A stretch of DNA of 64,000 bases from Sphagnum magellanicum. Its lineage: Eukaryota > Streptophyta > Sphagnopsida > Sphagnales > Sphagnaceae. The position numbers were made by a program, and so were the translations under genes. The notes under the pieces are model-generated. The model was not told where the DNA came from, ran no database searches, and saw only the letters and a list, made by a program, of their open reading frames with translations. Positions 1 to 25,847 of this stretch are shown here, one piece after another; within the stretch, counting starts at the first letter, position 1; every line of letters starts with the position of its first letter. Location of the stretch: assembly GCA_021904315.1 (NCBI GenBank), contig CM038912.1:3435061-3499060 (forward strand), read 5' to 3'.

Positions 1-335
1 GGTGGTTTCCTAAGGGGTGGCATGTATTGAATACAAAAAAGCCATAGTGGAGTTGACTCCAGGACCGAGCCAAAGTCATCTAGGCCAAGATGACATAAAA
101 TTATTCTAAACCTAAGCCAAGATGACATAAATGATTGTAATCCTAAACCAAGATGTCAAAAAATATTCTAACCCTATGTCAATATGTCAAGGCCCAGTAT
201 TCAAAGTTCAACTATTTGGGGTGCACGGTTTGATGTGCACTCCGTTTTCATTGTGCTGTCAAAGTGCACCTGAAATAGTCGACCTTGGTTACTCAATAAT
301 GTGTAAACAAGACCCAGAAGAATTTTCTAAGTGTA

Positions 336-367
336 CTAGTCTGTAAACCCATTTTGCAAGCAAAATG
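336..367 (-). other. Helitron 3' terminus (left copy)
   Basis: Minus-strand copy of the terminal signal: hairpin 367-350, ten-base spacer, CTAG at 339-336, then T. Together with the TC end at 10464 it bounds the composite Helitron. Confidence 0.85.
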
Positions 368-963
368 ATCAAATAAGCAAAAGACTAAAGTGTTATGTAT
401 CAAAGTCCATTTTGTCCATTTTTACTCATGAATTATTTTTAAAATTCAAATGTGGCCAACACTGAATAAAGGGGGTGTTCTTTGCATGGGGGCGGCCGGG
501 GAGGATTCATTTTCCTTTCAGCCAATAGGAGGGCCCAAGGTGCCTTGCTTTTATTCCTTTCAAATTACAGGGGGACATGGAAGAATTTTTTTCAGTTTTC
601 CCTGTTTCTTAATGTGTTCCCATAATGTTCCCTTTAAGTTCTTAATGGGTTCTCACAATGTTCCCCAAGTTCACAATGTGTTCCCTAACATGTTCTCCAT
701 ATAAGCACCTCACTTTTAGCCCATATGCTTTCGCATTTTCACCTATATAGGTGGGCCCAAGGGGAGGAACTATATACATCAAAACAGAACCTTTTATTTT
801 GAGGAGCCTCCATAGCTTCATTTTTTTGGTAGCAATGGGCCAATCAAATTGGTTTTGGCCCAGAATTTTGACATAGTTTGTTGATGAGAGCGAACATTCC
901 GGAGGATTCACCAATCCTGAATTATCGAATCAAGCACGTGCGAACACCATTTTTTTATAGTAG
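336..963 (-). mobile_element. Short non-autonomous Helitron (left)
   Basis: About 628 bp. On the minus strand it starts with a 5'-like end CTACTATAAAAAAATGG (963 downward), followed by CACGTGCTTGAT and AATTCAGGATTGG, which closely matches the first 60 bases of the large element at 10464. It ends with hairpin 367-350, ten bases and CTAG (339-336). The interior holds repeated GTTCCC words (590-705) and no credible gene. The initial TC is missing because this end is fused to the preceding hairpin. Confidence 0.7.
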
Positions 964-988
964 TTAAACCCATTTTGCTTGCAAAATG
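938..988 (-). other. Fused Helitron 3' hairpin and 5' end (left)
   Basis: Read on the minus strand, hairpin CATTTTGC-AA-GCAAAATG (988-971) is followed by GGTTTA as in the terminal copy. Instead of CAGACTAG it runs straight into ACTACTATAAAAAAATGG, the 5' end block of this family. CTAG and TC are both absent, as if about a dozen bases at a head-to-tail junction had been lost. The mirror is 19205-19255. Confidence 0.75.
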
Positions 989-1233
989 ATCAGGAGAAAA
1001 GATTGAAAGGACCTTGAGAACTATTTAGTTAATAGTTTTAAGTTGGGACAATTTTCATTCGATGGGATAGTAAGAATTTAGAAAGCATTCTATTTTCAAC
1101 AGCCACACGTCATGAACATAGCTTGCGTTGCAGTCATTTTTGCATCCAATGCAGGGAATTTCAACCCATGATTTGGATGTGGGAATTTCAATCCATCGAA
1201 ACAGAAAAGTAGGCAATAGATAGAGAAAAAAGA

Positions 1234-4200
1234 TCATTGCAACAATTCTGTATAAACAACATTGGTCATCGTCCTACCATTCGGGCAGAAAACAAAGACG
1301 TCATTCACAAGCGTAGCTCGTGACAAAGCTACATACAATTGGCCATGAGTGAAAACAGGTTTAAGCAAAAAAATGCCAACAGTTTTCTTGGTCTGACCCT
1401 GCGCGTTGTTAATTGTCATAGCGAATGCCAATTGCAAGGGGAATTGGCGCCTTTGTAGGGTGAATGGCCACTTCAAATGATTCGTTGTTGTGGTGATGCA
1501 CGGTATGTTGACAATATTCCCCGCATGCGCGCCACCAATGATCTGTGCAACGATCAATCTCCGTGCCAGGCGCGAAATGATTAGACGGGTCCCATTACAA
1601 AGTCCTAAGGTCGCATCGAGATTTCTTAGTAACATAACAGGGACACCAACTTTGAGGGCCAGGCGATGTGGTGGCATACCTACCAAAGTAATGGTGTTGA
1701 GAAATTCTGTGCCAATCACCATAGCCTGGTCATCCCCTGTTTCCACCAAGTCTACTGACAAAAATATGTGCTCTTGCCTAGGCACAGACTCGACAATTTG
1801 AGTGTTGAAAGAATTCACAATTATATTTTTTGTTGTCAAAATAGCTCGACCGTCCATGTATCCTTGGTTTGCGTAATTGATTGCCAGGGCCGGGAAAACA
1901 GCGTGGATGAGGGTCTCTAAAGATGGCGCTTGATGGATTTCTGGGTATAAGGCAATCTCGACTCCAATTGAGGGCTTCGCGTCGGCTTCCATGGAAAATG
2001 ATCAATGATGGAAAATTCTTGGCCATTGCCGACTCTTAGAAGGTACTCAGCATGCGGCTTGGAGAGGGGATTGGCGCGCAATCTCATGTTTTCCGTGAGA
2101 GTCAAGATGCGCACTTGACGCCACAAAACCGAACGCGAAAAGGTCGCAGAAACGATTGCTGCCCGAGAGCCTCTACACACCACTGGCGGACATTGTCAGA
2201 AATCACCCCCAAAAACAACCACTTTACCGCCAAAGGGCAAATCTGGGCGCCGCATGATGTCGCGCAAAGTCCGGTCTCCCGCCTCGGCACAGTGTCGATG
2301 TTGTGCTGGAGCTTCATCCCAAACGATCAACTTTGCTTCCCGGAGTAGCTCAGCAGAATCGCTTTGCACATGTATCAAACACATTGAATCCCTACCAAGG
2401 GCAATTGGGATCTTGAAAACCGAATGTGTGGTTCGTCCACCTTCCAATAGGAGAGCTGTTATGCCAGAAGAGGCAACCCAATGGCGACATGTCCATTTCA
2501 TCGAACCAATGCCAATAACACTTTATATACAAAGGTTTTGCCTGACCCACCTAGGCCGTCTAGGAAAAATACTATGCCTTTGCCTTGGGCTATTGCGTTG
2601 AACATTGTAGTGATAGTTATTTCCTAACAAATGTTGAGCCGTGGGAGATTTTGGTTGATGTAGCCATGGAGTATGTCTCTATCGTAGTCAAGTTCTGCAG
2701 CCAATTGAAGATTAACACGTAGCATTTTTACAGGTGGCAAAGCGAGCGGCATTTTTGGAAAATCATGCAAGCCTTTGTTCGTCAACGCTAATTTGGCCTC
2801 GAGGAGTAGTAGGGTATCGTTGTAGGCATCGTCGGCAGTGCCTCCATTCGTGATGCGTCGATGCCGCATATCATGTGACATATCGTCTCGATATCTTTCC
2901 CACAACACTTCTGGATTCAAAGGAAAGCATAATAGTAAGAGAGTCACAAAGAGATTCATTAGCCTCTTTGCGTCTTGATCGATACATGCTTCTTGCATGC
3001 ACATGTCCCATTCTACGTCATCCTGTAGTAATCCCAATGCTTTGCAAGCAACTTGAAACGTCGGATGCTCTATGTCGTCAACAGTCCGGAGATGTTCGAA
3101 AGAGGTTGCGCCTGGTACAACAATAATAGGAGGCGGAGGAAGAAGCGTTCACTAGCAACGGGATGTACAAAATACATTCGCCCAACAGCTTTTTCTCCTC
3201 GCTATCGAGCTGACCAAACTTTTTCTCGAATTTTCCAAACATGATCAACAGGGAAGTCCACATACACCACGTTCCACCCATCTGCATTTTGAGTGTTATA
3301 CGCAAAGTAGGCGGTCAAGGTGGTTTTTTGGTGGGCAGCACGCTCCGCCATAGTGGCCAAATCTTCATTTTCATTAAAAATGACGTTGTGCTGTCCTGGC
3401 AAATGAACGATTAATCGAGTGACTAACGGCCATTCCATATTTTTTTGAATGAAAGTAAAGAATCGACCCCTTCAACAGCGCTCAAATATCTGGCATTAAT
3501 GTATTGTTGGATTTCGTTTAGTGGACCGACAATCACCGCTGCAACACGATCAGGACCTTTGTAAACGTATTTAAAAAGGTATTTGACATTCCGAATATCG
3601 ACGGACACCTCGACGTTAATATGTGCATTAAACATCTTGGTAAGGTAGGGGTTGTGGGGCACCACCCATCGGTTGTCGTACGCAAAGCCATCTGGAGTTT
3701 TTTGAAACATTCAACCATCGTTTCGCCGACGGTAGACAGGGTAACCGTCTTCGCCTTGTGTTGTCTCCTCGGAGAAAGTTCGCGGATATCGTTTCTTGCA
3801 TAAACCGTTGACCATGCAAGGTGTGTTGGGGTATTCTTGGCCACACGGTCCGTGCAACAAACATTTTGTGACCATTTCAAAAAGAGGTGTGTTCTCTGGA
3901 AGAGGAAGCTCTGCCGACACTAAGTGATCTATGTCTTCGGTTGTGGAAACTTTCTGCTCTGGAGGAAATATAAAGAGCAGATGGTTTTGAGGTAGGCCTC
4001 GTTTCTGGTATTCCCTTGTCCAGATGTTCCCGGTATTCCCTTGTCCAGATGTTCCCAATAACTTTGGTGAACCATCCAATTTTTGCCACTCCTTTAAGAA
4101 GGGCTTTCACTTTCATCTGAAATACGCGAGCAACCAAATCTGGACGGTCAGAAGCTGTTTGGTTGGGCTCGAGCTCCGCGATTATTTCTTGCCAATTCGG

Positions 4201-5710
4201 GTTGCAAATGAATGTGAGGAAGACATCTGGAATTCCTTTGCTTCGCACAATAGCCATCACATCTTGATACGCTTGCATCATGAAACGTGGAAAACCACGA
4301 AATGAAGCTGGGAGAACAATTCGCTGACCCACTTGCGCAGGATGTAATCGGAAATCATGTTCGACCATATCTACCAGCCCTTGGTAGAGTTGCGCACGAA
4401 GTTGAGCTTGGTTTAACACCAAAAAGTTATGAGTGTTCTACTTTGTCTTAGCAGCAACGTCGACGATATATTATTGAAAAAGGCGACCACCGAGATGTAG
4501 AGCGAAGAGTTCGCCACTAAAGTGCACTCTTTGTGCGTAATAAACCGCCATTGAGACCCTTGTGCGTGCTCCGTCCTGATTGTTCTATAGCCGCAAATTT
4601 TCAGACCACCCATCCTCCCCAACGAGGAAAAGCAGTGGGTATTGTAAAGGATCGTAAGAAGGTGCTAGCTCGTTCATCCGCTGTAAACCACCTCCATATC
4701 GCCGTTGTATAATGACATTGTGATTTCCAACGTCTCCCGCCTCGCCAAGAATTATCATTGCAACCTCATTTACCGTAGGGGCGTTGTAACGGTGGACATC
4801 CATTTCCCAAGGTTTAGCCAGCTGTAATGCAAATGTGGACCTCTTTTGTAGGGTTTGTGGCGAGACGGTCGGTTGCACGAACGAAGACGTTTACATAAGG
4901 ATTTACGTGCTCAAGGATTGTGCGAAGTGTCATCAAATGCGCCGAGCTTAGATTGGGGTTCTACATCTATCGATTCGGACCTTCATTTACTGCATCATGC
5001 ACATAGGCCTGAAGAAAGCGTGGCAATTGCCCTTCTGCAAGTTCCATATCACCAATCAAGTGGTAGAATCTTCCTTGCACTTTGTAGGTATGCACTCCTA
5101 GTCCAAGCTCGAAGCCCACACTCTGGACGTAAATGCAAATGCAACATTGTATAAACAAAAATGTTTACGTAATTCAGCATTTTGTCGATCTTGTAACATG
5201 GCCATGTACTCTAGCGGGGTACGAATAGGAGGCAAAAGAATTTTCCCTGAAGCACAGCATTTATTATAGTGTGGTCTTCGAAGAGAGCCCCATGTGCGCT
5301 TTTCGATCCAAAAGCGAGAGCCACAATGGTTGTTGCATTGCTCATTCAAACGTTCGAACACTTGTCGGTCTACTTGCGGGTCAGCCAAGGGGTACCGCAA
5401 ATCTCGTAGGGCCATGTGGTGTCCAGCCTGAAGTTGATTCTTTGCACACGCGACGCGACGTTATTCAACGCATCGCGCAACATCTATCATTAGTTGGGTT
5501 TGATGGCCCTATTATGTTTCAAGAGCATGCGCTCTCGTGTGTTATTCCGTGTTTTCCAATAATTGACGAGCAATATTAACCATACACTATGCTTCCTCAT
5601 GTTGGGCCCCATTAAACTCAGCCCTTTCGAAAGCTACTGTAGCACGACGAAGTCTTTGACGTTCTCGAGCAGTTGCTCGCCTTTCTTCATCATTTGCATA
5701 TTTGCACGAT
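1234..5710 (-). pseudogene. Helitron Rep-helicase transposase, degenerate (left copy)
   Basis: Rolling-circle transposase with a Rep nuclease and a PIF1-type helicase. In order on the minus strand: an Arg-rich N terminus (about 5710-5600); an N-terminal block with GVHTYKVQGRFYHLIGD; the Helitron-like N domain with SYDPLQYPLLF and GEDGW (about 4878-4600); Rep with QAYQDVMAIVR and FICNPNW (4422-4060); the tyrosine region KYLFKYVYKG...EIQQYINARY (about 3600-3480); VHLPGQ; Walker A GLGGSGKT (about 2550); Walker B LIVWDEAPA (about 2320); and the C-terminal helicase with MLLRNLDATLGLCNGTRLI and GQLYVALSRA (1992-1234). It is broken many times by stops and frameshifts. The HUH motif reads RGLPQNHLL where RGLPHAHIL is usual. 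One stop in GGDF*Q (2196-2198) is a likely CGA to TGA change. No function is expected. Confidence 0.92.
4007..4056. repeat. 25-bp tandem duplication inside Rep (left)
   Basis: Two perfect head-to-tail copies of a 25-bp unit containing CATCTGGACAAGGG (as read on the Rep coding strand) sit just before the HUH motif. Twenty-five is not a multiple of three, so the duplication shifts the Rep frame. The mirror copy is at 16137-16186. Confidence 0.9.
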
Positions 5711-5760
5711 GCTCAAAGGCCTCGTCTACGATTCTTTCAGTCGAAAGCAAAATGGAATCA

Positions 5761-6356
5761 GGCTACCTGATACTCAAATGACATAGAGAATCTAAAAACA
5801 TAATAACATAACTTCATATTTAAGTACCATTACAACAGGCGCAAGTCTAACCTCGGGGTCAACATATCCACGAGCAATGTATTTGTATTCTTTGTATCAT
5901 GTGAAGCATTAACACACCAAAAACACCACACATGGAAGAGCCAAAAGGAGTGAGGAAAAGGTACCTCTTCCATGACAGTATTTGCAACGCTTGTGCTCCT
6001 GTTGATTCACATTGTTCAACTCTACAACCATGAATGACGTGATGACTCCCATAGCTCTTCCAAAAATTGATGCCACAATTGGGTCAACTTCACTCCAACC
6101 CCCGACCCAGCAATCTCAAGTTTAGGAGCACATACACCCAACCAAGATGCTCAACCACACCCATGTTCAAGAGGACATGATCTTCAAGTGACCCAAATCT
6201 AGCACATCGAACACATGCCAAGTACCCTACATGGTTTCTAATTGCCAAATAGAATCATGAATTGGTGTTAGGTCTCCAACAAACAAAATGAATCTTTTGA
6301 TTATCAAATAAAATATGTATCTGTATTCTCTATGTCATTTGAGTATCAGGCAGCCC
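5761..6356. mobile_element. Small element with 31-bp inverted ends (left)
   Basis: Bases 5761-5791 and the reverse complement of 6326-6356 agree at 30 of 31 positions (core TGATACTCAAATGACATAG). The enclosed 596 bp has no coding capacity. This looks like a MITE inserted upstream of the Rep gene, but I see no clear target-site duplication, so the class is unknown. The right mirror is 13837-14432. Confidence 0.5.
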
Positions 6357-6635
6357 TTTCCTAGTCAAACAAAACCAATTTAGTTTTAAAGAATCATATG
6401 AAGCACTAACCCACCAGAAACACCACACATGGAAGAGCCAAAAGGAATGAAGAAGAAGTACTTGTGCCATGACAATATTTGTAGTGCTTGTGCTCTTGTT
6501 GTTTCACATTGTTCAACTCTACAACCATGAGTAACGTGATGACTCCCATAGCTCCTCTAGAAATTGATGCCACAATTGGGTCAACTTCACTACAACCCCC
6601 CACCCAGCAATCTCAAGTTTAGGAGGGCATACAAC
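5896..6635. repeat. Pair of ~240-bp direct repeats (left)
   Basis: Copies at about 5896-6136 and 6393-6635 are roughly 85-90% alike, in the same orientation, about 497 bp apart. Each contains ACACCACACATGGAAGAGCC and GTGATGACTCCCATAGCTC. Read on the minus strand, each encodes a short KYCHG peptide that faintly recalls a BED zinc finger, but no transposase follows. Confidence 0.75.
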
Positions 6636-7449
6636 CTCCTAAGTCAAGACTTCACTGCTAGATAACCATCAAAACGACTCCTTGTTGGTCCTACTTTGTT
6701 GTTTTCTTCATGGAAATGAAAGGTTTGGAGGATAAACCTCAAAATGGTCCAAAATAAAAAAACTGTTCTTATTGGGCCAAGTGGGCAAATGTGTCATTCA
6801 TTGGAAGTCGCACAGTACCCCCTGCATACGGCCCACATTATCTTTTCCCATAAGAATCATTAACTAATTCAAGCAAAAAAATTGCAAAAATCTCCACTCA
6901 ATTAACCCTGTGTCTACATACATACTTTCCTACCATGACCACCTGAAAAATAATAGAGGAGAGAATTGTGTCCGGAGTCACATTTGTCCAAGCAACTTGA
7001 GGTTTTGATAAGGTTATAAAAAGCATGGGTGCAGTCGAATGGACCCCGCACCATCACCGCAATTAATGTTGATTCAAACTAATAGTAGACTTTGGGGAGG
7101 GAGGGGGGCTAGTATAGTGAAATAAGTGCCTACCTTTTTGTCCCACATCCTAAGTAACTGGTCTTTCATTTTGGCCCTGATGATGACCGGCTTGTGAGGG
7201 GTAAAGGTTAGGCCAAAAATAGTGATAAACTTTTTTGGGAGAGCAGAAAGTTCATGCAGCCAATGGGAAGGCCCATTTTTTCCTTTTAAGTGATTTAATC
7301 TCTAACCATGTCCCAAACACAATATTGTAAGGGAAGACAACAATAATATACAACCACTTATCTTCACGATGGAAGAGGTTTATTTTGGAATCTACATCTA
7401 AAGAAAGAATTTTTCTGTGGAATGTCTATAACATACACAAACTATTCAC

Positions 7450-9330
7450 TCTCCTATCCTCTTAAGGATGTCAAAGAAAACTTGTTATCACTTTCAAATC
7501 CTACCTCAGGAATTCACATCTCCCTTCAATCATTCTGTCATGGTTTTGTCAGGTAGTCCTGCCACTACCTTCAGTCTCTTTGCTTTTCTCTCCGTTTCAA
7601 CTATTCAGTCCACATGCTCTCATGGGGGCCACTCCCAATTTGAGTTGCCAATTAGAGGATAATGCCACTACTGTGTTTTCTTTATGTGTCTATCCTATCT
7701 TGTTCCCATAAAATCAATGTGCTCCTCCCATAAGAGCAATGGAGTCTTTGTCTTTTGTGAAATTTTGGAATTCAGACTCAACAACTTAAGTCACAGTCTA
7801 GGTATGTGCAGCTGTGAACCCTTTCTTGCCGTTAAATATCTTGAACTGGTCCATTATATCAGCTTTGCTACTGTACTCCCTAAAGACATACTCTTCCAGG
7901 TTTATGTCACCTGTAACCTTCCCCTCACTGTAATAGGTTGGACACAGGTTGAAGTTCTTTGTCATTTCTTTAAATTGAAGCCCAATTTAATAATGATATA
8001 ATTACATGTTGCACATGTGACTCCAGTGTGTCGTACACAGTCACCAGTCTCAAGCTTCACTAGTGTGTTCAATATGCCAAATCCCCAGTTAGTGTCATTG
8101 AACCTGTTGAAAAACTCTAGGTATGAAACTTGTACCTTTTCAGCATCTCCACGAACCTCTGCAAGCTCACTCACCCCCTGCAAATTCCAGCAATAATTCA
8201 AGAACTAACACTGCGTGCAAAAAAGTAGTCACTCATGCCAACCCTTATAGTAATAGGTATAGACTATAAACTATATGTTACATGAAAGACTTGAGGTGTT
8301 GCCCATTTTCAAGAAGACAAAGGGCAGAATGTATTGAAGTTTCTAGAAGCCTGTAGAAAACGTACCTGATCTGGAAGATAAATGGCACGTAGATACTTGT
8401 GTAACTTTTGGCATCAGTGTACAAAATGATTCCTTCTCTAGCATGTGAGATATGCCATTTCAGCACATCAAAAACTAAACACTTCCTCTTATCAGTTGGC
8501 CCAGCACACAGTGGGGCCAGCACTGCAAAGAACATTCCAACATCCATTCAACCTGACCCTGCACGGTCTAGTATTGATAAGATCCATTCATTGATCATCC
8601 TCGCTGCACCCTGCAACCATTGCAAAACTCATCAGTTACAGGCCACCTCAGCAACAACCATCCATTATCTTTATGCTTTTACTCTCTATGATCATGTGAC
8701 ACTAAAGAGGTTGGTTTCTGTCTTGGTATTACCTGGAATGTGTCTGGAGTTAGAAATCCAAGAAGTTGACACAAAATCTTCTTAAGCTCTGCTTTGCAAA
8801 CCACTTTATCATTTTGAACAGAAAAGCTCCAATGGACTTGGAATCTCCTAGGAGATATTTGCATTCTTCAACTCTCCTCTTCAAGTCACCAATATCACAG
8901 TGATGTAGCCAGTGTGTTTTTGGAAGTTGCATATGTCAAGGGCATAAGCAAGGAACTCATGGGCCATTGTTTTGCTGTGGGGTGCTATTTGAAACCTCGC
9001 ATTCTCCACTATCATGAACATGGAGTCAACATTTGATTCAATTAATAGGGGACAATGAAATGTATCATTCTGGAATGTTAGATGTGAGACATCCAGTTCA
9101 AAACAAAAATCTCAAAATGTGGAAACACTCACTTCAAAAATCCCTTAGTACAGTCTGACCCCACATTAACTCTTTGGAATTTCAGCTGGGCTTTCTTGAG
9201 GAATGCAACTTATGGTTTGGTGAGCAGGAAGTATGCGTCTCTAAGCCATGGCAGAAGGAATAAACAGTATGTCGTTCCATCCACTCCGTCCAGTCTTTCA
9301 AGTGAGCAGGTTGGTGAGTAAAGCTTGTGG
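7450..9330 (-). pseudogene. Captured fragment of an EF-hand/ZZ (dystrophin-like) gene
   Basis: Several exon-like blocks with GT/AG borders lie in order on the minus strand. About 9330-9125 includes LLPWLRDAYFLL. About 9070-8940 includes IESNVDSMFMIVENARFQIA. About 8905-8735 includes DLKRRVEECKYLLGD. About 8615-8368 includes MINEWILSILDRAGSG, a stop, then MDVGMFFAVLAPLCAGP, ending KYLRAIYLPDQ. About 8180-7960 includes YLEFFNRFNDTNWGFGILN and GVTCATCNY. About 7960-7800 includes FNLCPTYYSEGKV and LEEYVFREYSSKADIMDQF. The MINEWILSIL block resembles the EF-hand_2 region of dystrophins, and GVTCATC with NLCPT resembles a ZZ zinc finger, with one expected Cys now Tyr. Frameshifts and stops make it non-functional. 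It lies within the Helitron in the same orientation, with introns retained, as expected for DNA-level capture. The family name is tentative; the coding nature of the blocks is more certain. Confidence 0.55.
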
Positions 9331-10066
9331 CACAATTCTGGTGACAGTGATATCAAGGAGTTGGCTGCTTGCCTTTACATGTCACATGACTGAGACATGT
9401 GAAGCTCTTTGACTTAATAGCTTGGAAGTAAAATAAATGTGCAAAATTTGTGAAGATGATGATCTAAATGCATAGGTTTTGTGATTAAACCATGCCATGT
9501 AACTCCTTTAGTTGGTGTTGCTAAAAAATAAGCTTTGTCAAGCATCAAGCAACAAATGTCTTCTTATTATCAAGTAATCACACTGTTTCTCTTATACATA
9601 CTCTTAGACACCGCATCATGCTTTTCTTCTCTTCCAAATAATCACGGCTTGAACTCTGTGAGATCATGCCTTTTTGGACTGGTTACCATGGACCTCCTTA
9701 TCGTACCGGAGACTATCTTGCAAGAAAATCATGGCAAGAACGCTTAACCGTCGGACGGAACTAACATAGACCGCAAAAAGGTACCCGACATGGACAAATA
9801 GAGACCTAAAATGCAGAAGGAGATGCACTTGAATTGTTGGTGTATAGATGATACATTCTCATGAGCTGCATGACTCCCCTCTCAATCACGCAACCTCTTT
9901 GCTATTGACCGAAACTTACTTCCAGCAGTGTCACAAAACTTCAAGAACGCTTGAAATTCAAATTTGTACTGAGAAAAAAGTCAAAAGAGATACCTGGTGC
10001 ACACAAACCAGAGAAAGATCAAAGATCTCATAGCCTGGTACCACTCTTGGGACCACCTATTTATGT

Positions 10067-10403
10067 CTGACGTTGCCAAGGCTTGCTCAAGAAGCGCCAA
10101 AAAGTGTACTGCGTGGAGGAGCTATGATGCACAAAAACAAAGCAGCCGACGCGATTCCGAACCAAAAGTCGGTTCATAGCTCTTCTTCTGGGGCCCTCAA
10201 GGGAAAGGAGGGGTGTTGGGGGGGGGGGGGGGGGGGGGTTTGACGTTGCCAAGGCTTGCTCAAGAAGCGCCAAAAAGCATACTGCGTGGAGGAGCTGCGA
10301 TGCACAAAAACAGAGCGGCCAACGCGATTTCGATCCAAAATTCGGTTCATAACTCTTCTTTTAGGACCCTCAAGGGAAGGGGGGGGGGTGTTGGGGGGGG
10401 TCC
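10067..10403. repeat. Tandem ~170-bp duplication with 21-bp poly-G
   Basis: Segments of about 10067-10240 and 10241-10403 are diverged copies of one unit that begins at GACGTTGCCAAGGCTTGCTC. On the minus strand both encode a conserved peptide ending FWRFLSKPWQRQ, with changes such as MNRILDRNRVG against MNRLLVRNRVG. Twenty-one consecutive Gs (10218-10238) end the first copy. The unit lies just inside the Helitron 5' end. I do not recognise the peptide. Confidence 0.75.
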
Positions 10404-10404
10404 T

Positions 10405-10464
10405 CGAGCCAATCATGAATTACCGCATCAAGCACGTGGACACCCATTTTTTTATAGTAGTAGA
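10405..10464 (-). other. Helitron 5' terminus (TC end)
   Basis: On the minus strand TCTACTACTATAAAAAAA begins at 10464 and the preceding base is A. The next 50 bases, including CACGTGCTTGATGCGG and AATTCATGATTGG, match the 5' block inside each arm (for example 19230-19285) with few changes. This is the only complete 5' end in the window. Confidence 0.8.
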
Positions 10465-11080
10465 TGTGAAGGGTATGTTGCCTTCAATAAAATTTCTGCC
10501 TCAATAGAGGATGGCTCCTTGTGCCTAAGGTGAACCTTAAAGGCAAGGTGCCTCTTCTCTTCACACACAAAGTCCTAGATGTCCATTTTAAAAGCAAAAT
10601 GCCACTGGTTTTTTATGCTGTGTAAGGACCTTGAACAAGGTTGTTCCGAGTTTTTGAGTAAATAACCAATTTTGGAGGTTGTAACCTACATTAATGGATT
10701 AGGGTAGTCCTTCTTATGAAACCCACCACAATTTCAACATTTGTCTTCTTTACTTTTTTTCGTCAATTATGAATGAAACAACCGAATTCATATTTGGTTC
10801 CCTTGCTTTTATGGATGGGATTATCATCTAACTCAATGGTGCCAATTGCCCCTAAATATCAACAAGGCCCCTTATGGTTCCATACATGCCAATATCCTCC
10901 ATATCTCATAATAATGGTGTGGTGATAAACCTTGAAAATGAACCTATTTATGAATATGAAAATTTCCCAAATGATGATGAAGGTGGTGTGGGTGGTCTAA
11001 ACTACACCTCGTGCATTTATAAAATCATTTGTGATAGTAAATGTATTCTTCAAGTCCCTAAATCATGAAAATGGTTCAAG
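10465..11080. other. Non-genic flank beyond the Helitron 5' end
   Basis: Sequence next to the TC end, presumably the old insertion target. Short open frames only (for example 10874-11068), with no recognisable protein. Nothing else supported. Confidence 0.5.
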
Positions 11081-13530: not shown

Positions 13531-13557
13531 TCTAGCAGTGAAGTCTTGACTTAGGAG

Positions 13558-14297
13558 GTTGTATGCCCTCCTAAACTTGAGATTGCTGGGTGGGGGGTTG
13601 TAGTGAAGTTGACCCAATTGTGGCATCAATTTCTAGAGGAGCTATGGGAGTCATCACGTTACTCATGGTTGTAGAGTTGAACAATGTGAAACAACAAGAG
13701 CACAAGCACTACAAATATTGTCATGGCACAAGTACTTCTTCTTCATTCCTTTTGGCTCTTCCATGTGTGGTGTTTCTGGTGGGTTAGTGCTTCATATGAT
13801 TCTTTAAAACTAAATTGGTTTTGTTTGACTAGGAAAGGGCTGCCTGATACTCAAATGACATAGAGAATACAGATACATATTTTATTTGATAATCAAAAGA
13901 TTCATTTTGTTTGTTGGAGACCTAACACCAATTCATGATTCTATTTGGCAATTAGAAACCATGTAGGGTACTTGGCATGTGTTCGATGTGCTAGATTTGG
14001 GTCACTTGAAGATCATGTCCTCTTGAACATGGGTGTGGTTGAGCATCTTGGTTGGGTGTATGTGCTCCTAAACTTGAGATTGCTGGGTCGGGGGTTGGAG
14101 TGAAGTTGACCCAATTGTGGCATCAATTTTTGGAAGAGCTATGGGAGTCATCACGTCATTCATGGTTGTAGAGTTGAACAATGTGAATCAACAGGAGCAC
14201 AAGCGTTGCAAATACTGTCATGGAAGAGGTACCTTTTCCTCACTCCTTTTGGCTCTTCCATGTGTGGTGTTTTTGGTGTGTTAATGCTTCACATGAT
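13558..14297. repeat. Pair of ~240-bp direct repeats (right)
   Basis: Mirror copies at about 13558-13800 and 14057-14297. The first starts 27 bp inside the inner breakpoint of the palindrome. Confidence 0.75.
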
Positions 14298-14432
14298 ACA
14301 AAGAATACAAATACATTGCTCGTGGATATGTTGACCCCGAGGTTAGACTTGCGCCTGTTGTAATGGTACTTAAATATGAAGTTATGTTATTATGTTTTTA
14401 GATTCTCTATGTCATTTGAGTATCAGGTAGCC
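13837..14432. mobile_element. Small element with 31-bp inverted ends (right)
   Basis: Mirror of 5761-6356, with ends at 13837-13867 and 14402-14432. It has the same interior and the same single mismatch between the ends. Confidence 0.5.
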
Positions 14433-14482
14433 TGATTCCATTTTGCTTTCGACTGAAAGAATCGTAGACGAGGCCTTTGAGC

Positions 14483-17400
14483 ATCGTGCAAATATGCAAA
14501 TGATGAAGAAAGGCGAGCAACTGCTCGAGAACGTCAAAGACTTCGTCGTGCTACAGTAGCTTTCGAAAGGGCTGAGTTTAATGGGGCCCAACATGAGGAA
14601 GCATAGTGTATGGTTAATATTGCTCGTCAATTATTGGAAAACACGGAATAACACACGAGAGCGCATGCTCTTGAAACATAATAGGGCCATCAAACCCAAC
14701 TAATGATAGATGTTGCGCGATGCGTTGAATAACGTCGCGTCGCGTGTGCAAAGAATCAACTTCAGGCTGGACACCACATGGCCCTACGAGATTTGCGGTA
14801 CCCCTTGGCTGACCCGCAAGTAGACCGACAAGTGTTCGAACGTTTGAATGAGCAATGCAACAACCATTGTGGCTCTCGCTTTTGGATCGAAAAGCGCACA
14901 TGGGGCTCTCTTCGAAGACCACACTATAATAAATGCTGTGCTTCAGGGAAAATTCTTTTGCCTCCTATTCGTACCCCGCTAGAGTACATGGCCATGTTAC
15001 AAGATCGACAAAATGCTGAATTACGTAAACATTTTTGTTTATACAATGTTGCATTTGCATTTACGTCCAGAGTGTGGGCTTCGAGCTTGGACTAGGAGTG
15101 CATACCTACAAAGTGCAAGGAAGATTCTACCACTTGATTGGTGATATGGAACTTGCAGAAGGGCAATTGCCACGCTTTCTTCAGGCCTATGTGCATGATG
15201 CAGTAAATGAAGGTCCGAATCGATAGATGTAGAACCCCAATCTAAGCTCGGCGCATTTGATGACACTTCGCACAATCCTTGAGCACGTAAATCCTTATGT
15301 AAACGTCTTCGTTCGTGCAACCGACCGTCTCGCCACAAACCCTACAAAAGAGGTCCACATTTGCATTACAGCTGGCTAAACCTTGGGAAATGGATGTCCA
15401 CCGTTACAACGCCCCTACGGTAAATGAGGTTGCAATGATAATTCTTGGCGAGGCGGGAGACGTTGGAAATCACAATGTCATTATACAACGGCGATATGGA
15501 GGTGGTTTACAGCGGATGAACGAGCTAGCACCTTCTTACGATCCTTTACAATACCCACTGCTTTTCCTCGTTGGGGAGGATGGGTGGTCTGAAAATTTGC
15601 GGCTATAGAACAATCAGGACGGAGCACGCACAAGGGTCTCAATGGCGGTTTATTACGCACAAAGAGTGCACTTTAGTGGCGAACTCTTCGCTCTACATCT
15701 CGGTGGTCGCCTTTTTCAATAATATATCGTCGACGTTGCTGCTAAGACAAAGTAGAACACTCATAACTTTTTGGTGTTAAACCAAGCTCAACTTCGTGCG
15801 CAACTCTACCAAGGGCTGGTAGATATGGTCGAACATGATTTCCGATTACATCCTGCGCAAGTGGGTCAGCGAATTGTTCTCCCAGCTTCATTTCGTGGTT
15901 TTCCACGTTTCATGATGCAAGCGTATCAAGATGTGATGGCTATTGTGCGAAGCAAAGGAATTCCAGATGTCTTCCTCACATTCATTTGCAACCCGAATTG
16001 GCAAGAAATAATCGCGGAGCTCGAGCCCAACCAAACAGCTTCTGACCGTCCAGATTTGGTTGCTCGCGTATTTCAGATGAAAGTGAAAGCCCTTCTTAAA
16101 GGAGTGGCAAAAATTGGATGGTTCACCAAAGTTATTGGGAACATCTGGACAAGGGAATACCGGGAACATCTGGACAAGGGAATACCAGAAACGAGGCCTA
16201 CCTCAAAACCATCTGCTCTTTATATTTCCTCCAGAGCAGAAAGTTTCCACAACCGAAGACATAGATCACTTAGTGTCGGCAGAGCTTCCTCTTCCAGAGA
16301 ACACACCTCTTTTTGAAATGGTCACAAAATGTTTGTTGCACGGACCGTGTGGCCAAGAATACCCCAACACACCTTGCATGGTCAACGGTTTATGCAAGAA
16401 ACGATATCCGCGAACTTTCTCCGAGGAGACAACACAAGGCGAAGACGGTTACCCTGTCTACCGTCGGCGAAACGATGGTTGAATGTTTCAAAAAACTCCA
16501 GATGGCTTTGCGTACGACAACCGATGGGTGGTGCCCCACAACCCCTACCTTACCAAGATGTTTAATGCACATATTAACGTCGAGGTGTCCGTCGATATTC
16601 GGAATGTCAAATACCTTTTTAAATACGTTTACAAAGGTCCTGATCGTGTTGCAGCGGTGATTGTCGGTCCACTAAACGAAATCCAACAATACATTAATGC
16701 CAGATATTTGAGCGCTGTTGAAGGGGTCGATTCTTTACTTTCATTCAAAAAAATATGGAATGGCCGTTAGTCACTCGATTAATCGTTCATTTGCCAGGAC
16801 AGCACAACGTCATTTTTAATGAAAATGAAGATTTGGCCACTATGGCGGAGCGTGCTGCCCACCAAAAAACCACCTTGACCGCCTACTTTGCGTATAACAC
16901 TCAAAATGCAGATGGGTGGAACGTGGTGTATGTGGACTTCCCTGTTGATCATGTTTGGAAAATTCGAGAAAAAGTTTGGTCAGCTCGATAGCGAGGAGAA
17001 AAAGCTGTTGGGCGAATGTATTTTGTACATCCCGTTGCTAGTGAACGCTTCTTCCTCCGCCTCCTATTATTGTTGTACCAGGCGCAACCTCTTTCGAACA
17101 TCTCCGGACTGTTGACGACATAGAGCATCCGACGTTTCAAGTTGCTTGCAAAGCATTGGGATTACTACAGGATGACGTAGAATGGGACATGTGCATGCAA
17201 GAAGCATGTATCGATCAAGACGCAAAGAGGCTAATGAATCTCTTTGTGACTCTCTTACTATTATGCTTTCCTTTGAATCCAGAAGTGTTGTGGGAAAGAT
17301 ATCGAGACGATATGTCACACGATATGCGGCATCGACGCATCACGAATGGAGGCACTGCCGACGATGCCTACAACGATACCCTACTACTCCTCGAGGCCAA

Positions 17401-18959
17401 ATTAGCGTTGACGAACAAAGGCTTGCATGATTTTCCAAAAATGCCGCTCGCTTTGCCACCTGTAAAAATGCTACGTGTTAATCTTCAATTGGCTGCAGAA
17501 CTTGACTACGATAGAGACATACTCCATGGCTACATCAACCAAAATCTCCCACGGCTCAACATTTGTTAGGAAATAACTATCACTACAATGTTCAACGCAA
17601 TAGCCCAAGGCAAAGGCATAGTATTTTTCCTAGACGGCCTAGGTGGGTCAGGCAAAACCTTTGTATATAAAGTGTTATTGGCATTGGTTCGATGAAATGG
17701 ACATGTCGCCATTGGGTTGCCTCTTCTGGCATAACAGCTCTCCTATTGGAAGGTGGACGAACCACACATTCGGTTTTCAAGATCCCAATTGCCCTTGGTA
17801 GGGATTCAATGTGTTTGATACATGTGCAAAGCGATTCTGCTGAGCTACTCCGGGAAGCAAAGTTGATCGTTTGGGATGAAGCTCCAGCACAACATCGACA
17901 CTGTGCCGAGGCGGGAGACCGGACTTTGCGCGACATCATGCGGCGCCCAGATTTGCCCTTTGGCGGTAAAGTGGTTGTTTTTGGGGGTGATTTCTGACAA
18001 TGTCCGCCAGTGGTGTGTAGAGGCTCTCGGGCAGCAATCGTTTCTGCGACCTTTTCGCGTTCGGTTTTGTGGCGTCAAGTGCGCATCTTGACTCTCACGG
18101 AAAACATGAGATTGCGCGCCAATCCCCTCTCCAAGCCGCATGCTGAGTACCTTCTAAGAGTCGGCAATGGCCAAGAATTTTCCATCATTGATCATTTTCC
18201 ATGGAAGCCGACGCGAAGCCCTCAATTGGAGTCGAGATTGCCTTATACCCAGAAATCCATCAAGCGCCATCTTTAGAGACCCTCATCCACGCTGTTTTCC
18301 CGGCCCTGGCAATCAATTACGCAAACCAAGGATACATGGACGGTCGAGCTATTTTGACAACAAAAAATATAATTGTGAATTCTTTCAACACTCAAATTGT
18401 CGAGTCTGTGCCTAGGCAAGAGCACATATTTTTGTCAGTAGACTTGGTGGAAACAGGGGATGACCAGGCTATGGTGATTGGCACAGAATTTCTCAACACC
18501 ATTACTTTGGTAGGTATGCCACCACATCGCCTGGCCCTCAAAGTTGGTGTCCCTGTTATGTTACTAAGAAATCTCGATGCGACCTTAGGACTTTGTAATG
18601 GGACCCGTCTAATCATTTCGCGCCTGGCACGGAGATTGATCGTTGCACAGATCATTGGTGGCGCGCATGCGGGGAATATTGTCAACATACCGTGCATCAC
18701 CACAACAACGAATCATTTGAAGTGGCCATTCACCCTACAAAGGCGCCAATTCCCCTTGCAATTGGCATTCGCTATGACAATTAACAACGCGCAGGGTCAG
18801 ACCAAGAAAACTGTTGGCATTTTTTTGCTTAAACCTGTTTTCACTCATGGCCAATTGTATGTAGCTTTGTCACGAGCTACGCTTGTGAATGACGTCTTTG
18901 TTTTCTGCCCGAATGGTAGGACGATGACCAATGTTGTTTATACAGAATTGTTGCAATGA
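14483..18959 (+). pseudogene. Helitron Rep-helicase transposase, degenerate (right copy)
   Basis: Mirror copy of 1234-5710 with the same domains and the same lesions. The N-terminal block is at about 14780-15230, the Helitron-like N domain at 15315-15608, Rep at 15771-16215, the Tyr-containing segment at 16483-16770, Walker A at about 17635-17660, a stop right after that segment (17692-17694), Walker B at about 17870, the GGDF stop at 17995-17997, and the C-terminal helicase at 18201-18959. The long last frame (252 residues) ends in QFPLQLAFAMTINNAQGQT and the arginine-finger-like ALSRA. The shared lesions show that the gene was dead before the arms were duplicated. Confidence 0.92.
16137..16186. 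repeat. 25-bp tandem duplication inside Rep (right)
   Basis: Units 16137-16161 and 16162-16186 are identical. The frame entering as GNIWTREY is repeated out of frame, which separates the upstream Rep frame from the HUH segment that follows at about 16181-16215. Confidence 0.9.
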
Positions 18960-19204
18960 TCTTTTTTCTCTATCTATTGCCTACTTTTCTGTTTCGATGG
19001 ATTGAAATTCCCACATCCAAATCATGGGTTGAAATTCCCTGCATTGGATGCAAAAATGACTGCAACGCAAGCTATGTTCATGACGTGTGGCTGTTGAAAA
19101 TAGAATGCTTTCTAAATTCTTACTATCCCATCGAATGAAAATTGTCCCAACTTAAAACTATTAACTAAATAGTTCTCAAGGTCCTTTCAATCTTTTCTCC
19201 TGAT

Positions 19205-19255
19205 CATTTTGCAAGCAAAATGGGTTTAACTACTATAAAAAAATGGTGTTCGCAC
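19205..19255 (+). other. Fused Helitron 3' hairpin and 5' end (right)
   Basis: Mirror of 938-988, identical. Hairpin 19205-19222, then GGTTTA, then the 5' end block starting about 19229. Its presence in both arms means that the fusion predates the inverted duplication. Confidence 0.75.
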
Positions 19256-19857
19256 GTGCTTGATTCGATAATTCAGGATTGGTGAATCCTCCGGAATGTT
19301 CGCTCTCATCAACAAACTATGTCAAAATTCTGGGCCAAAACCAATTTGATTGGCCCATTGCTACCAAAAAAATGAAGCTATGGAGGCTCCTCAAAATAAA
19401 AGGTTCTGTTTTGATGTATATAGTTCCTCCCCTTGGGCCCACCTATATAGGTGAAAATGCGAAAGCATATGGGCTAAAAGTGAGGTGCTTATATGGAGAA
19501 CATGTTAGGGAACACATTGTGAACTTGGGGAACATTGTGAGAACCCATTAAGAACTTAAAGGGAACATTATGGGAACACATTAAGAAACAGGGAAAACTG
19601 AAAAAAATTCTTCCATGTCCCCCTGTAATTTGAAAGGAATAAAAGCAAGGCACCTTGGGCCCTCCTATTGGCTGAAAGGAAAATGAATCCTCCCCGGCCG
19701 CCCCCATGCAAAGAACACCCCCTTTATTCAGTGTTGGCCACATTTGAATTTTAAAAATAATTCATGAGTAAAAATGGACAAAATGGACTTTGATACATAA
19801 CACTTTAGTCTTTTGCTTATTTGATCATTTTGCTTGCAAAATGGGTTTACAGACTAG
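19230..19857 (+). mobile_element. Short non-autonomous Helitron (right)
   Basis: Mirror copy of 336-963 in the right arm. The 5'-like end is at 19230, and the 3' hairpin and CTAG are at 19826-19857. Its family membership with the 10.1 kb element rests on the shared 5' terminal block and the shared hairpin, which differ only in the two loop bases (AA against TT). Confidence 0.7.
19826..19857 (+). other. Helitron 3' terminus: hairpin, 10 nt, CTAG
   Basis: CATTTTGC, loop TT, GCAAAATG forms a perfect 8-bp stem at 19826-19843. Ten bases follow, then CTAG at 19854-19857 and a host T. This is the classic Helitron 3' arrangement. The same signal lies on the minus strand at 336-367. Confidence 0.85.
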
Positions 19858-20192
19858 TACACTTAGAAAATTCTTCTGGGTCTTGTTTACACATTATTGA
19901 GTAACCAAGGTCGACTATTTCAGGTGCACTTTGACAGCACAATGAAAACGGAGTGCACATCAAACCGTGCACCCCAAATAGTTGAACTTTGAATACTGGG
20001 CCTTGACATATTGACATAGGGTTAGAATATTTTTTGACATCTTGGTTTAGGATTACAATCATTTATGTCATCTTGGCTTAGGTTTAGAATAATTTTATGT
20101 CATCTTGGCCTAGATGACTTTGGCTCGGTCCTGGAGTCAACTCCACTATGGCTTTTTTGTATTCAATACATGCCACCCCTTAGGAAACCACC

Positions 20193-20452
20193 CTAAGCTA
20201 GAAAAAAGCCTGAAGAAGTGCCTGAATAAGACTCCCAAAATGGTTATGACAAAGGTTTACAGCAGTGTTGTCAAGTTCTTCCTTTTCGAGAGAAGGTCTG
20301 ATCCCTCTTTGACATTTAAAACTTTATGTGAAGGTTCTTGGGGTATGGATTTGAGCCAGGTTCTTCTAAAATTTGAATCCTTTCATTCTGGTTCTATCAC
20401 ATTCTTTCAAGTTCAAGAATTTTTGAACTCGATTTTTGAACTGGGTCCAGTT
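20193..20452. other. Flank just outside the right arm
   Basis: The first unique sequence after the palindrome as seen in this window. A 130-residue frame (20114-20506) crosses the arm boundary and resembles nothing I know. No gene called. Confidence 0.4.
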
Positions 20453-20513
20453 GAAAACATTAAACAGGCCAAAGGAAATGAAATGCATTTCCTTTGGCCT
20501 GTTTAATGTTTTC
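20453..20513. repeat. Perfect 28-bp inverted repeat (hairpin)
   Basis: Bases 20453-20480 are the exact reverse complement of 20486-20513 with a 5-base loop (core ACAGGCCAAAGGAAATG). An RNA from either strand would fold to an uninterrupted 28-bp stem. It could be a small-RNA precursor, a recombination scar or a remnant of a palindromic element. There is no independent sign of transcription. Confidence 0.9.
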
Positions 20514-20813
20514 CAGTTTTTAAGTTTTTTAAAAAGTCAGTTTTTTTACATACATATCCTGACCCTGTTTGCGAAAATATTTTTCACTGTTCCAATTATG
20601 ATTCCGGACCTAGCAAAACATTTTCTCCATGCTGCAGTTCTTGTGTTAGTGGCGACAAAATGCTCGGGTCTGGGTCACAAGAGATTGACCCTGAGCCCCG
20701 GGGTTTTACCCTACTCCAAACTCGATACCCTTGCAACACAAGTTTACACCAAAAATGCCGACACAGAAACCTTATCCATCATTTATGCAAGGTCTTGTGT
20801 GCAATAAAATTAG

Positions 20814-21151
20814 TGTTTTTGGCAAACACTTTACACGAAAAAGGGTCAGCATTGTTTACAACACTTTTTATTAACAAGGTCAGCATTTTCGACAACACTT
20901 TACATTAAAATAGGTCAGCATTTTTGACAACACTCTACATTAACAAGGGTCAGCATTTTTGACAGCACTTTACATTAAAATGGGTCAGCATTTTTGACAA
21001 CACTTTACATAAAAATGGGTCAGCATTTTGTACAACACTTTACATTATTAACGAGGGTCAGCAGTTTTTACAACACTTTACATTAACAAGGGACAGCATT
21101 TTTGATAACACTTTACATTAAAAAGGGTCAGCATTTTTGACAATGCTTTAA
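20814..21151. repeat. Minisatellite, ~35-bp unit, about nine copies
   Basis: Diverged tandem units, each containing GGGTCAGCATTTTTGACAAC followed by ACTTTACATTAA. Unit length varies between 34 and 38 bp. It lies directly upstream of the SDR gene promoter. Confidence 0.9.
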
Positions 21152-21301
21152 AAAACGGAGTACTGTAGACGTGCCCTCCGCCATTCAGTGGCCGGTGTCC
21201 AAACAGTCGGTGCTAGAAGTTGTAAAAAGGTGATCGGAAAGTTCAAGTGACGTTTCAAACTTTTTTTTTTTTGCCTCTGTATGTCATCCACGCTGCACAA
21301 G

Positions 21302-21309
21302 TATATAAA
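21302..21309 (+). promoter_or_regulatory. Putative TATA box of the SDR gene
   Basis: TATATAAA lies 104 bases upstream of the predicted SDR start codon at 21413, a normal distance for a plant core promoter with a short leader. Position and sequence are the only evidence. Confidence 0.45.
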
Positions 21310-21412
21310 TGTGTACCACAAAGTGAGCATCTCGTCATTCGCACGTTTGGAGACATTTACAGTAGTCCGGTTTCAAGAATCCAGGAACGTGACCGAATTT
21401 CAGCTACGCAAC

Positions 21413-23031
21413 ATGGGGAAAGAAGCTGAGAGGTAAGGTATATTGACAGGTCCTCAGTACTCATGAAGAATTTTTCAAAGGGTGTGATCTTCGCTTCTGC
21501 AATCGACGGCCTCAATTTTTTCTTGGACATGTTCTCTTAGTTGTGTGCTCTCTCGGAAGTGTTTCAGGTGGTGGTCCAAAGACACTGTCGCAGTGGTGAC
21601 AGGAGCCAACAAAGGGATAGGCTTGGAAATTGTCCGCCAGTTGGCGAAGGAGGGCATTACCGTGGTGCTTACAGCTCGCGATGCAACCCGTGGTGAAGAG
21701 GCCCTTAAATCTTTGAAAAGCCAAGGGCTTCACAATGTGAATTTCCATCCTCTTGATGTTACTAGCCAAGAGTCCATACTAGCACTTGCAAACTGGCTGC
21801 GCGAGACTTATGGAGGCATTGACATTCTTGTAAGGACATGTGACGCATACAAACTCTTCAAACATTTTGCTTTTGTTGTGTGTTAAGTGAAACATTTCGG
21901 AGATTGAACAAATTAAATTAGTCAAAGTTGGTTGTGAAAGTTAAAACATATGTTAGTGACCTCAAACTGTAAAAGGTTCAAGCAGAAAACTGAAAATTGA
22001 TGAGTTACTGATGTTGTATTTGCTACTCCAGATCAATAATGCAGGCATTGTACTCATTGGAAGTGACACGACCGTTGAGACTGTGAAACTTGTATTCGAC
22101 ACAAATTATTTCGGTGTCAAAAATGTCACAAAAGCTCTACTTCCTCTTCTACGTGATGATACACCTGGTGGTGCTCGAGTCATTGTTGTGGCATCTAGGG
22201 CTGGCCGACTCCAGGTAACGTACTTGGGTATCCTTGTTCCACAACAACCCCTCAATGATCCTCTTTTGTGCACTTGAATGAAATCTTCAGCTCTTTTCCA
22301 AATGGATAGGTCTAGAGGGAGAATTAAGCTTTCTAAATTTGAAATCCCATGTCTAGGTAGAATCTAAAAAGCATTTTGAATTCTTATGGATTATTAGAAT
22401 GTGAAAATTTTCCATCAATTGAGTCAAGCATCCATGCCATTCTAAGCAAACTAATAAGCAAGAAAAGTCCTATTGATGGAAGGCATGGAGTGACGAGCAG
22501 ATTGTTTGATTCACATCTTCTAACTAGAGGTTGACTCCCACATCCAGCAATGTGCATTTTCTGATTATGTTTTATATATGCGGTTGTGTGTGCGCCAAAC
22601 TTCAGGCCCTACAAAGCAAGGATTACGTGAAAACTTTCTCTGATAGGGAGCACCTTACGGAAGAGGCTGTTGACAATTTTGCAAATCACTACTTGAAGGA
22701 CATTGCAAATGGGTCTCTCAAAGAAGGGGATTGGGTTAACGTAAGTGAATCCCCAACGCCAAACTGGGGACAGCCATTTGAGACTTATTCAGTTTCCAAA
22801 GTTGCAGTCAGCGCTTTTGTGAGTGTCCTACATAACACTTTGTCCCAACCTGGAAGTGGAAAAAAGATCAATATCTTTAGCTGCTGCCCTGGTTTTGTCG
22901 CCGTAGATGTCCATACCAGCGGAGGGACGAGTGTTGAAGTAGGTGCTGATACCCCAGTATGGTTAGCACTCCATTCTCCAGAAGGAGGTTCTGGAAAATT
23001 TTGGGCTGAGAGAGAAGTAATTGATTTTTAA
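21413..23031 (+). CDS. Short-chain dehydrogenase/reductase, carbonyl/menthone reductase-like
   Basis: NAD(P)H-dependent oxidoreductase of the plant SDR family that includes neomenthol and salutaridine reductases. The substrate is unknown and the location probably cytosolic, since no targeting peptide is seen. Four exons agree in phase: 21413-21432, 21568-21829, 22032-22214 and 22606-23031, giving 296 residues, the usual family length. Visible motifs: cofactor loop TGANKGIG (residues 18-25), NNAG (96-99), the serine in VASRAG (about 149), and the catalytic pair YSVSK (Tyr216, Lys220). The start was chosen because MGKEAER joins the second exon in phase and matches the short leader of relatives. 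A GTAAGT inside exon 4 (22741) could act as an alternative donor, but the frame reads through and YSVSK lies beyond it. The gene looks intact. Confidence 0.88.
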
Positions 23032-23139
23032 TGTTGATGTTGTTCTGCAGTCTTATTTCTCTAGAATCCCATCTCCTACAATTTGCCCAACTCCATTCAA
23101 GAGTTGCAAATGCATTGGAAACTGGTACACAATTTCAGA

Positions 23140-23145
23140 AATAAA
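23140..23145 (+). terminator. Putative polyadenylation signal of the SDR gene
   Basis: AATAAA lies 109 bases after the SDR stop codon. Plant signals are loose, so this is a plausible and not certain site. Confidence 0.4.
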
Positions 23146-25647: not shown

Positions 25648-25847
25648 TATGACTTAGTCGTGCAGTTGGCTAGGTCGCAGAAAGTTCCAGATGTCTTGAA
25701 GCTCAAGGGTAACATTAAGGACTACTACACCATTGCTAGTGCGGGATGAGCAATCCAATGGTCAACCTCTTGGGGTTGCATGGCAAAAAACAACTTGAGC
25801 ATGTGGAGCAAATGAGAGCCACTCCAGAGGAATGGGGGTTCTTCCAG
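25648..25847 (+). pseudogene. 2-oxoglutarate/Fe(II) dioxygenase, N-terminal exon fragment
   Basis: A single exon-like block. It starts YDLVVQLARSQKVPDVLKL and, after one frameshift near 25747, continues NPMVNLLGLHGKKQLEHVEQ and RATPEEWGFFQ before a GT donor at 25848. The pattern of a short substrate-independent leader, then a hydrophobic strand, then EEWGFFQ at the end of exon 1 is characteristic of the N-terminal domain of plant 2-oxoglutarate-dependent dioxygenases. The iron-binding HxD...H and RxS motifs of the C-terminal domain are not found downstream, so this is a dead fragment. I cannot tell which subfamily it came from. Confidence 0.5.

What the first reader, a model, noticed from the sequence alone, without database searches (positions are those of the whole stretch)
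336..10464. Composite 10.1 kb Helitron with canonical A|TC and CTAG|T ends
On the minus strand a textbook 5' end at 10464 and a textbook 3' end (hairpin, ten bases, CTAG) at 336 enclose a captured host gene, the Rep-helicase relic and a second short Helitron. This could have moved as one unit.
Basis: partly seen in the sequence, partly recalled or inferred. Interest (0 to 1): 0.75.

Follow-up and report, generated by a model that had tools for sequence, protein, structure and literature searches.

The report
Fused composite Helitron, moved as unit
A broken jumping gene of the Helitron type is joined end to end with a shorter relative, and copies of the joined pair stand at several other places in the same genome, which shows that it moved as one piece; this is a clear example of a kind of event that is already known.

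Summary
They are family ends. Two other complete copies (C1, 7.75 kb; C2, 8.51 kb) have the same ends and align with window 336-7059 at about 92%, including an internal junction at 964 where the core has lost its CTAG and the short tail its TC. So 336-964 is a fused tail, not a later insertion. Among scored hits, 14 other places span that junction; at nine its letters were seen, one with a base change. Core-only and tail-only relatives with intact ends exist. The C2 copy sits in a repeat; 24 listed repeat copies run across the site, four of them read: exact on the 3' side, 7 bases longer on the 5' side. The lineage therefore moves as one unit. For this 10.13 kb copy that is inferred: no empty site was found. 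Its captured stretch (7060-10056) was not found in C1 or C2, but its core-side junction recurs on C6. Reading frames are broken. A 13.2 kb inverted duplication covers 336-6662. Known kind, good example.

The parts
10425..10464 (-). 5' terminus of the composite Helitron, A|TCTACTACTATAAA...
   Evidence: set beside other family 5' ends
10057..10464 (-). Helitron head region, with an internal direct repeat (10065-10225 / 10238-10400, 88%); shared with C1 (84%) and C2 (83%)
9207..10189 (.). second filler piece, matched at about 94-96% on C12:14217529-14218569; overlaps the inner part of the head
7060..9211 (-). captured stretch: 3' exons of a host gene (relatives of about 74% at C9:9791397 and C6:8979246; frames upstream in the C6 relative encode TPR repeats); not found in C1 and C2
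965..7059 (-). Rep-helicase core, reading frames broken; the stretch that looks like the HUH motif (motif recalled) reads QNH here, HIH in the C1 copy
958..992 (-). fused junction: core's 3' hairpin (971-988) kept, its CTAG and the tail's TC lost; same junction in other places
336..964 (-). fused tail, by inference derived from a short non-autonomous Helitron
336..367 (-). 3' terminus: hairpin 350-367, ten bases 340-349, CTAG 336-339, flanking T
13531..19857 (+). inverted twin of 336-6662: 3' part of the composite without a 5' end
1..6662 (.). left arm of the inverted duplication (the arm runs on left of the window to position -6509)
13531..26697 (.). right arm of the inverted duplication; carries a short-chain dehydrogenase-like frame (22528-23031; Pfam E 1.1e-4, below the curated cut-off)

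Best explanation
336-10464 is one 10,129-base composite Helitron, now decayed. Inferred history: an autonomous Rep-helicase Helitron and a short non-autonomous relative came to lie head-to-tail (rolling-circle concatemer or insertion next to each other, both known); the facing inner ends (CTAG of the first, TC of the second) were lost; from then on the transposase started at the core's TC, ran through the remaining inner hairpin, and stopped at the tail's hairpin-CTAG, so that the pair spread as one element. Shown: shared outer ends, the same fused junction at other places, intact separate relatives of both halves, and sites without the element for one composite (C2). Inferred: that this very copy, with the gene piece at 7060-10056, jumped in one step; and that a later fold-back inverted duplication copied its 3' part.
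For: Full copies at C1 (7,748 bases) and C2 (8,507 bases, with a second internal head) have the same ends, the fused junction and 6.75 kb of colinear sequence at about 92% to the window, in different flanks. Of 40 scored hits to 760-1160 (864 candidates), 16 span the junction (two are the window's own arms), 9 match mainly the core side and 15 mainly the tail side. The fused letters were seen at nine places outside the window: C1, C2, C3:6.15M, C6:22.36M, C6:22.67M (one base change), C8, C11:9.97M, C17:18.17M, C17:18.81M. The 3 tail-only loci fetched start A|TCTACTTATAT, the 1 core-only locus fetched ends CTAG|T. C2's joined flanks run uninterrupted in 24 of 43 listed rows; in the 4 fetched the 3' side is exact at A|T. 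The core-side junction of the captured piece at 7060 recurs at C6:22.67M.
Against: No site without the element for this locus: the joined flanks matched only separately. For C2 only about 40 bases of the 5' flank lie in the repeat, the 24 rows are 73-85% identical, 20 of them were not read, and the empty copies are 7 bases longer on the 5' side than the occupied flank. C1's 3' flank is A, not T. The window's captured piece was not found in C1 and C2, and the C6:22.67M copy that shares its junction is rearranged, with no 5' end of matching orientation in the capped list. The tail-only relatives have a slightly different 5' head from the tail in the composite.
Confidence: 0.82

Rival explanations
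1. The outer ends and the fused tail moved as a unit, but the captured stretch 7060-10056 arrived later by rearrangement at this locus or at C6:22.67M, so the 10.1 kb version never jumped whole.
For: C1 and C2 have 671 and 880 other bases at that place. The only other place read with the same core-side junction is on the same chromosome and has a fold-back rearrangement.
Against: The core-side junction at 7060 is shared by two places 19 Mb apart, and gene-piece capture by Helitrons is known (PMC4778049 passages).
Confidence: 0.3
2. Two independent insertions: an autonomous Helitron ending at 964 and a short Helitron that landed beside it at this locus only.
For: Short Helitrons with their own ends exist, and insertion directly behind a CTAG is known (PMC2267711 passages); in this genome 16 matches to a CTAG|TC junction pattern were found, 11 of them with the letters CTAG|TC.
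Against: The same fused junction, without CTAG or TC, stands in nine other places by letters, and the C2 composite as a whole is missing from other copies of its repeat.
Confidence: 0.04
3. The copies spread by segmental duplication, not transposition.
For: A 13.2 kb inverted duplication here copies the 3' part with its outer flank; C1 also has a nearby second 3' end with a 97% identical flank.
Against: C1, C2 and the window have different flanks at TC and CTAG ends, and C2's site has copies without the element, exact on the 3' side.
Confidence: 0.06

Closest known systems
Composite or chimeric Helitrons attributed to self-insertion (FoHeli, Fusarium oxysporum; PMC5148889, passages and section 16 read)
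   Same: Two Helitrons joined; [quoted passage not shown]
Adjacent head-to-tail maize Helitrons with CTAG|TC junction (PMC2267711, passages read)
   Same: Head-to-tail arrangement; G|T junction without host A, as in several loci here; small flanking deletions reported.
   Different: The maize pair keeps both inner ends and was judged two insertions; here the inner ends are lost and the pair is dispersed.
Helraiser read-through, from a reconstructed bat Helitron (PMC4778049 and PMC5876387, passages read)
   Same: The transposase bypasses a 3' end and stops at a later one, carrying the sequence between.
   Different: There the hairpin was deleted or the end bypassed; here the hairpin stays and the CTAG is lost. 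Not tested functionally.

Membership tests
Helitron (canonical) | 5' TC at a host A | tested here: met
Helitron (canonical) | 3' CTRR at a host T with a hairpin about ten bases upstream | tested here: met
Helitron (canonical) | insertion between A and T without target duplication | tested here: inconclusive
   No site without the element found for this locus; the C2 copy fits on the 3' side, its 5' flank is 7 bases shorter than the four empty copies read
Helitron (canonical) | Rep (HUH) and Pif1-type helicase coding sequence | tested here: met
   Helitron_like_N and Pif1_2B; frames broken and the HUH-like stretch altered here, so a relic
Composite (chimeric) Helitron | inner termini lost, outer termini used as a pair at several sites | tested here: met
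Helentron / Helitron2 | endonuclease domain and T-T insertion (recalled) | not tested
   Considered only as the sister group; the termini here are of the canonical type

The most novel reading that the evidence does not exclude
The inverted duplication and the Helitron are mechanistically linked: its inner breakpoint (6662/13531) falls exactly behind a fortuitous Helitron-like 3' end on the + strand (AAGTC-AA-GACTT hairpin, five bases, CTAG), so Helitron strand breakage may have seeded a fold-back duplication of 13 kb that carries a dehydrogenase-like gene. Against it: the next base is A in both arms, not T, and no other listed copy ends at 6662.
Probability: 0.07. Interest if true: 0.6.

Novelty: new member of a known kind. 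Interest (0 to 1): 0.32.

Why it matters
In one genome the separate relatives of both halves, the fused form at several places, and copies of a site without the element can all be read, so the making and spread of a composite Helitron can be followed. The fused junction is a natural test of what stops a Helitron: the inner hairpin is intact but without CTAG, and the elements ran past it to the next end. That suggests the hairpin alone is not enough, which a cell assay could check.

Tried and rejected
Site without the element for the window's own copy: the joined flanks gave only separate matches (160 candidates, 40 scored); 10465-11062 has no second copy among the scored matches (448 candidates, 40 scored), so this assembly did not answer it. 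A paralogue of the dehydrogenase-like locus (C6:3637864-3650000) was fetched as a possible empty site; its homology stops at window 21230, 1.4 kb short of the Helitron end, so it did not help, but it showed that the right arm's outer side is the older arrangement. Reading the right arm as a Helitron transposition copy of the left arm was rejected: a copy should be new at both ends, whereas the right arm is new only at its inner end (26 of 65 listed rows, the window included, run across 6662, 9 of them over the whole query) and the left arm only at its outer end; apart from the right arm no listed row ends at 6662. A search for intact tail heads with the composite's own letters found only fused junctions (10 of 10 rows, two of them the window's own arms); the separate tails fetched have a different head. 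Pfam on four pieces of the captured gene gave no family; frames upstream in a relative gave TPR repeats. Paper listings. Passages read: PMC5876387, PMC2267711, PMC4778049, PMC13286980, PMC4683698, PMC5148889 (section 16 in 67). The listing for Helitron plus Sphagnum held seven papers; none of the seven was opened. No claim is made that this family is unpublished.

Full report
Setting. The window is G000:C6:3435061-3499060, in a 439 Mb assembly of 31 contigs without names. The size and contig number recall Sphagnum magellanicum; that is memory, not a result.

Observation. On the minus strand the element starts A|TCTACTACTATAAAAAAATGGGTG at 10464 and ends CATTTTGCTTGCAAAATG-GGTTTACAGA-CTAG|T at 336. 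Protein relics are on the same strand: Helitron_like_N in 3877-4437 and Pif1_2B in 1234-2001; a third frame, 2624-3148, gave no family. Frames are broken in the window, C1 and C2 copies alike; a stretch like the HUH motif (recalled) reads QNH in the window and HIH in C1. The ends are those of a family: 83 matches to the 3' end pattern against 0 for the reversed control. In the loci then held a pattern read 26 distinct 5' ends: 14 A|TC, 2 A|TT, 5 directly behind a CTAG, 5 with another base before them. It read 15 distinct 3' ends: 8 followed by T of a flank, 6 by a further Helitron head, 1 by A.

Do the ends co-occur? Yes. C1:27973500-27981700 and C2:35971300-35980300 were read in full. C1 (7,748 bases) and C2 (8,507 bases) run from TC to CTAG and align with window 7059-336 and 7067-336 over 6.75 kb at 91.8% and 91.7%. 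The two align with each other over 7.28 kb at 92.6%. C2 has a second, internal head about 590 bases after its TC. C8, C14 and C17:18.81M show the two ends with the fused junction between them, in one orientation, by coordinates only. C1's 3' flank begins with A.

The inner short Helitron. At 964/965 the core's 3' hairpin (CATTTTGCAAGCAAAATG) and GGGTTTA run straight into ACTACTATAAA: the core's CTAG and the tail's TC are gone. The same letters stand in C1 and C2, in C6:22.36M and C11:9.97M and, with one change after the junction, in C6:22.67M; TTAACTACTATAAA was also read in C3:6.15M, C8, C17:18.17M and C17:18.81M. Of 40 scored hits to window 760-1160 (864 candidates, so lower bounds), 16 span the junction (two are the window's own arms), 9 match mainly the core side and 15 mainly the tail side. 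One of the 9, C2:25.08M, runs past the junction and has the unfused form there, core end CTAG directly followed by TCTACTACT; two of the 15 run 33-40 bases past it, and one of these, C13:8.94M, also reads CTAG|TC. Separate relatives are real elements: the three tail-only loci fetched start A|TCTACTTATAT, and the one core-only locus fetched ends GGGTTTACAGACTAG|T. At five of the nine core-side loci the 3' end pattern with CTAG was found at the expected place; at four it was not. So the tail is a fixed, fused part of a lineage, and head-to-tail pairs that still have the inner ends exist beside it.

Site without the element. Flank pairs of the window, C1, C2 and C7 were joined and searched. For C2, 24 of 43 listed rows (73-85% identical) run across the join; they are other copies of the repeat in which C2's element sits. 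They begin about 40 bases before the join, so only that much of the 5' flank belongs to the repeat. A further row that crosses the join is C2's own 5' flank running into the element. Four of the 24 were read: the 3' flank TTTACCATAAAG follows directly on an A in all four (one has a base change in it), and on the 5' side they have ATAATTTCA where the occupied flank has TA, a net 7 bases. Either a small loss came with the insertion, as reported for maize (PMC2267711), or this repeat copy differed already. The window, C1 and C7 pairs gave no spanning match of that kind.

Captured piece. C1 and C2 leave the window's sequence at about 7060 and rejoin it at about 10057, with 671 and 880 other bases between; the window has 2,997. 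Of these, 7277-9066 matches a fragment left of the left arm (-8295 to -6506, 95.6%, inverted), and parts match C7:12.76M and C6:22.67M at 93-95% and C9:9791397 and C6:8979246 at 74%. The C6:8979246 relative has TPR-coding frames upstream of the matching part, so the captured part is by inference the 3' end of that kind of gene. The core-side junction at 7060 recurs at C6:22.67M, twice, in opposite orientations. That supports movement of core plus captured piece, but that copy is rearranged.

The inverted duplication. Positions -6509 to 6662 and 26697 to 13531 are 99.85% identical in opposite orientation (13,172 bases; 15 substitutions, one 5-base gap). Fourteen of the 15 substitutions and the gap lie in the outer 1.7 kb; the inner 11.4 kb has one difference. 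That points to recent homogenisation between the arms or to two events; an assembly error is not excluded. Inner side: 26 of 65 listed rows, the window included, run across 6662, 9 of them over the whole query, so the left copy is the older arrangement there. Outer side: the paralogue at C6:3.64M continues past 26697 to 27874, so the right copy is older there. A fold-back duplication followed by loss of the left outer part fits both; that is inference.

Mechanism. A Helitron transposase starts at TC and stops at hairpin-CTAG; bypass of a 3' end to a later one is reported for Helraiser (PMC4778049 passages), and head-to-tail junctions and circles are known (PMC5876387 passages). Here a head-to-tail junction pattern has 16 matches with up to 3 mismatches (2 without mismatch; 11 with the letters CTAG|TC; reversed control 0), so such pairs occur repeatedly in this family. 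Loss of the inner CTAG and TC in one such pair would leave the outer ends as the only working pair. The same idea is in print for Fusarium (PMC5148889, section 16).

Verdict. The finding is right about ends and unit, with the correction about the inner element and the caveat about the captured piece. It is a good example of a known kind.

Noticed in passing
window 1-6662 and 13531-26697 (left arm from -6509): 13.17 kb inverted duplication, 99.85% identical, 6.9 kb spacer; 14 of 15 substitutions and the one gap lie in the outer 1.7 kb; a short-chain dehydrogenase-like frame (below Pfam's cut-off) lies in the arm.
   Followed up: partly
window 6642-6662 (+ strand): The inner breakpoint of the inverted duplication falls directly behind a hairpin-spacer-CTAG that looks like a Helitron 3' end on the other strand; apart from the right arm no listed copy ends there.
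   Followed up: partly
L045 (C6:22665498-22669976): Another fold-back rearrangement around the same captured gene piece: 6882-8356 and 7102-6236 in opposite orientation, next to a Helitron 3' end and a further family 3' end.
   Followed up: partly
C8:665644, C6:11790695, C14:1365101, C2:25078752 and others: Head-to-tail Helitron copies joined CTAG|TC without a host base; other loci show a different fusion (CAGA|CGTGCTTGATTC).
   Followed up: partly
window 11080-12408: A 1.3 kb repeat in the spacer of the inverted duplication, with 36 listed matches of over 1 kb at 75-84%; not identified.
   Followed up: no
window 42692-49251, minus strand: Open frames of 634, 161 and 159 aa without Pfam match; the text recalls an ATAD5/Elg1-like protein (not tested).
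   Followed up: no
window 57939-58403, plus strand: EF-hand-like frame, below Pfam's cut-offs.
   Followed up: no
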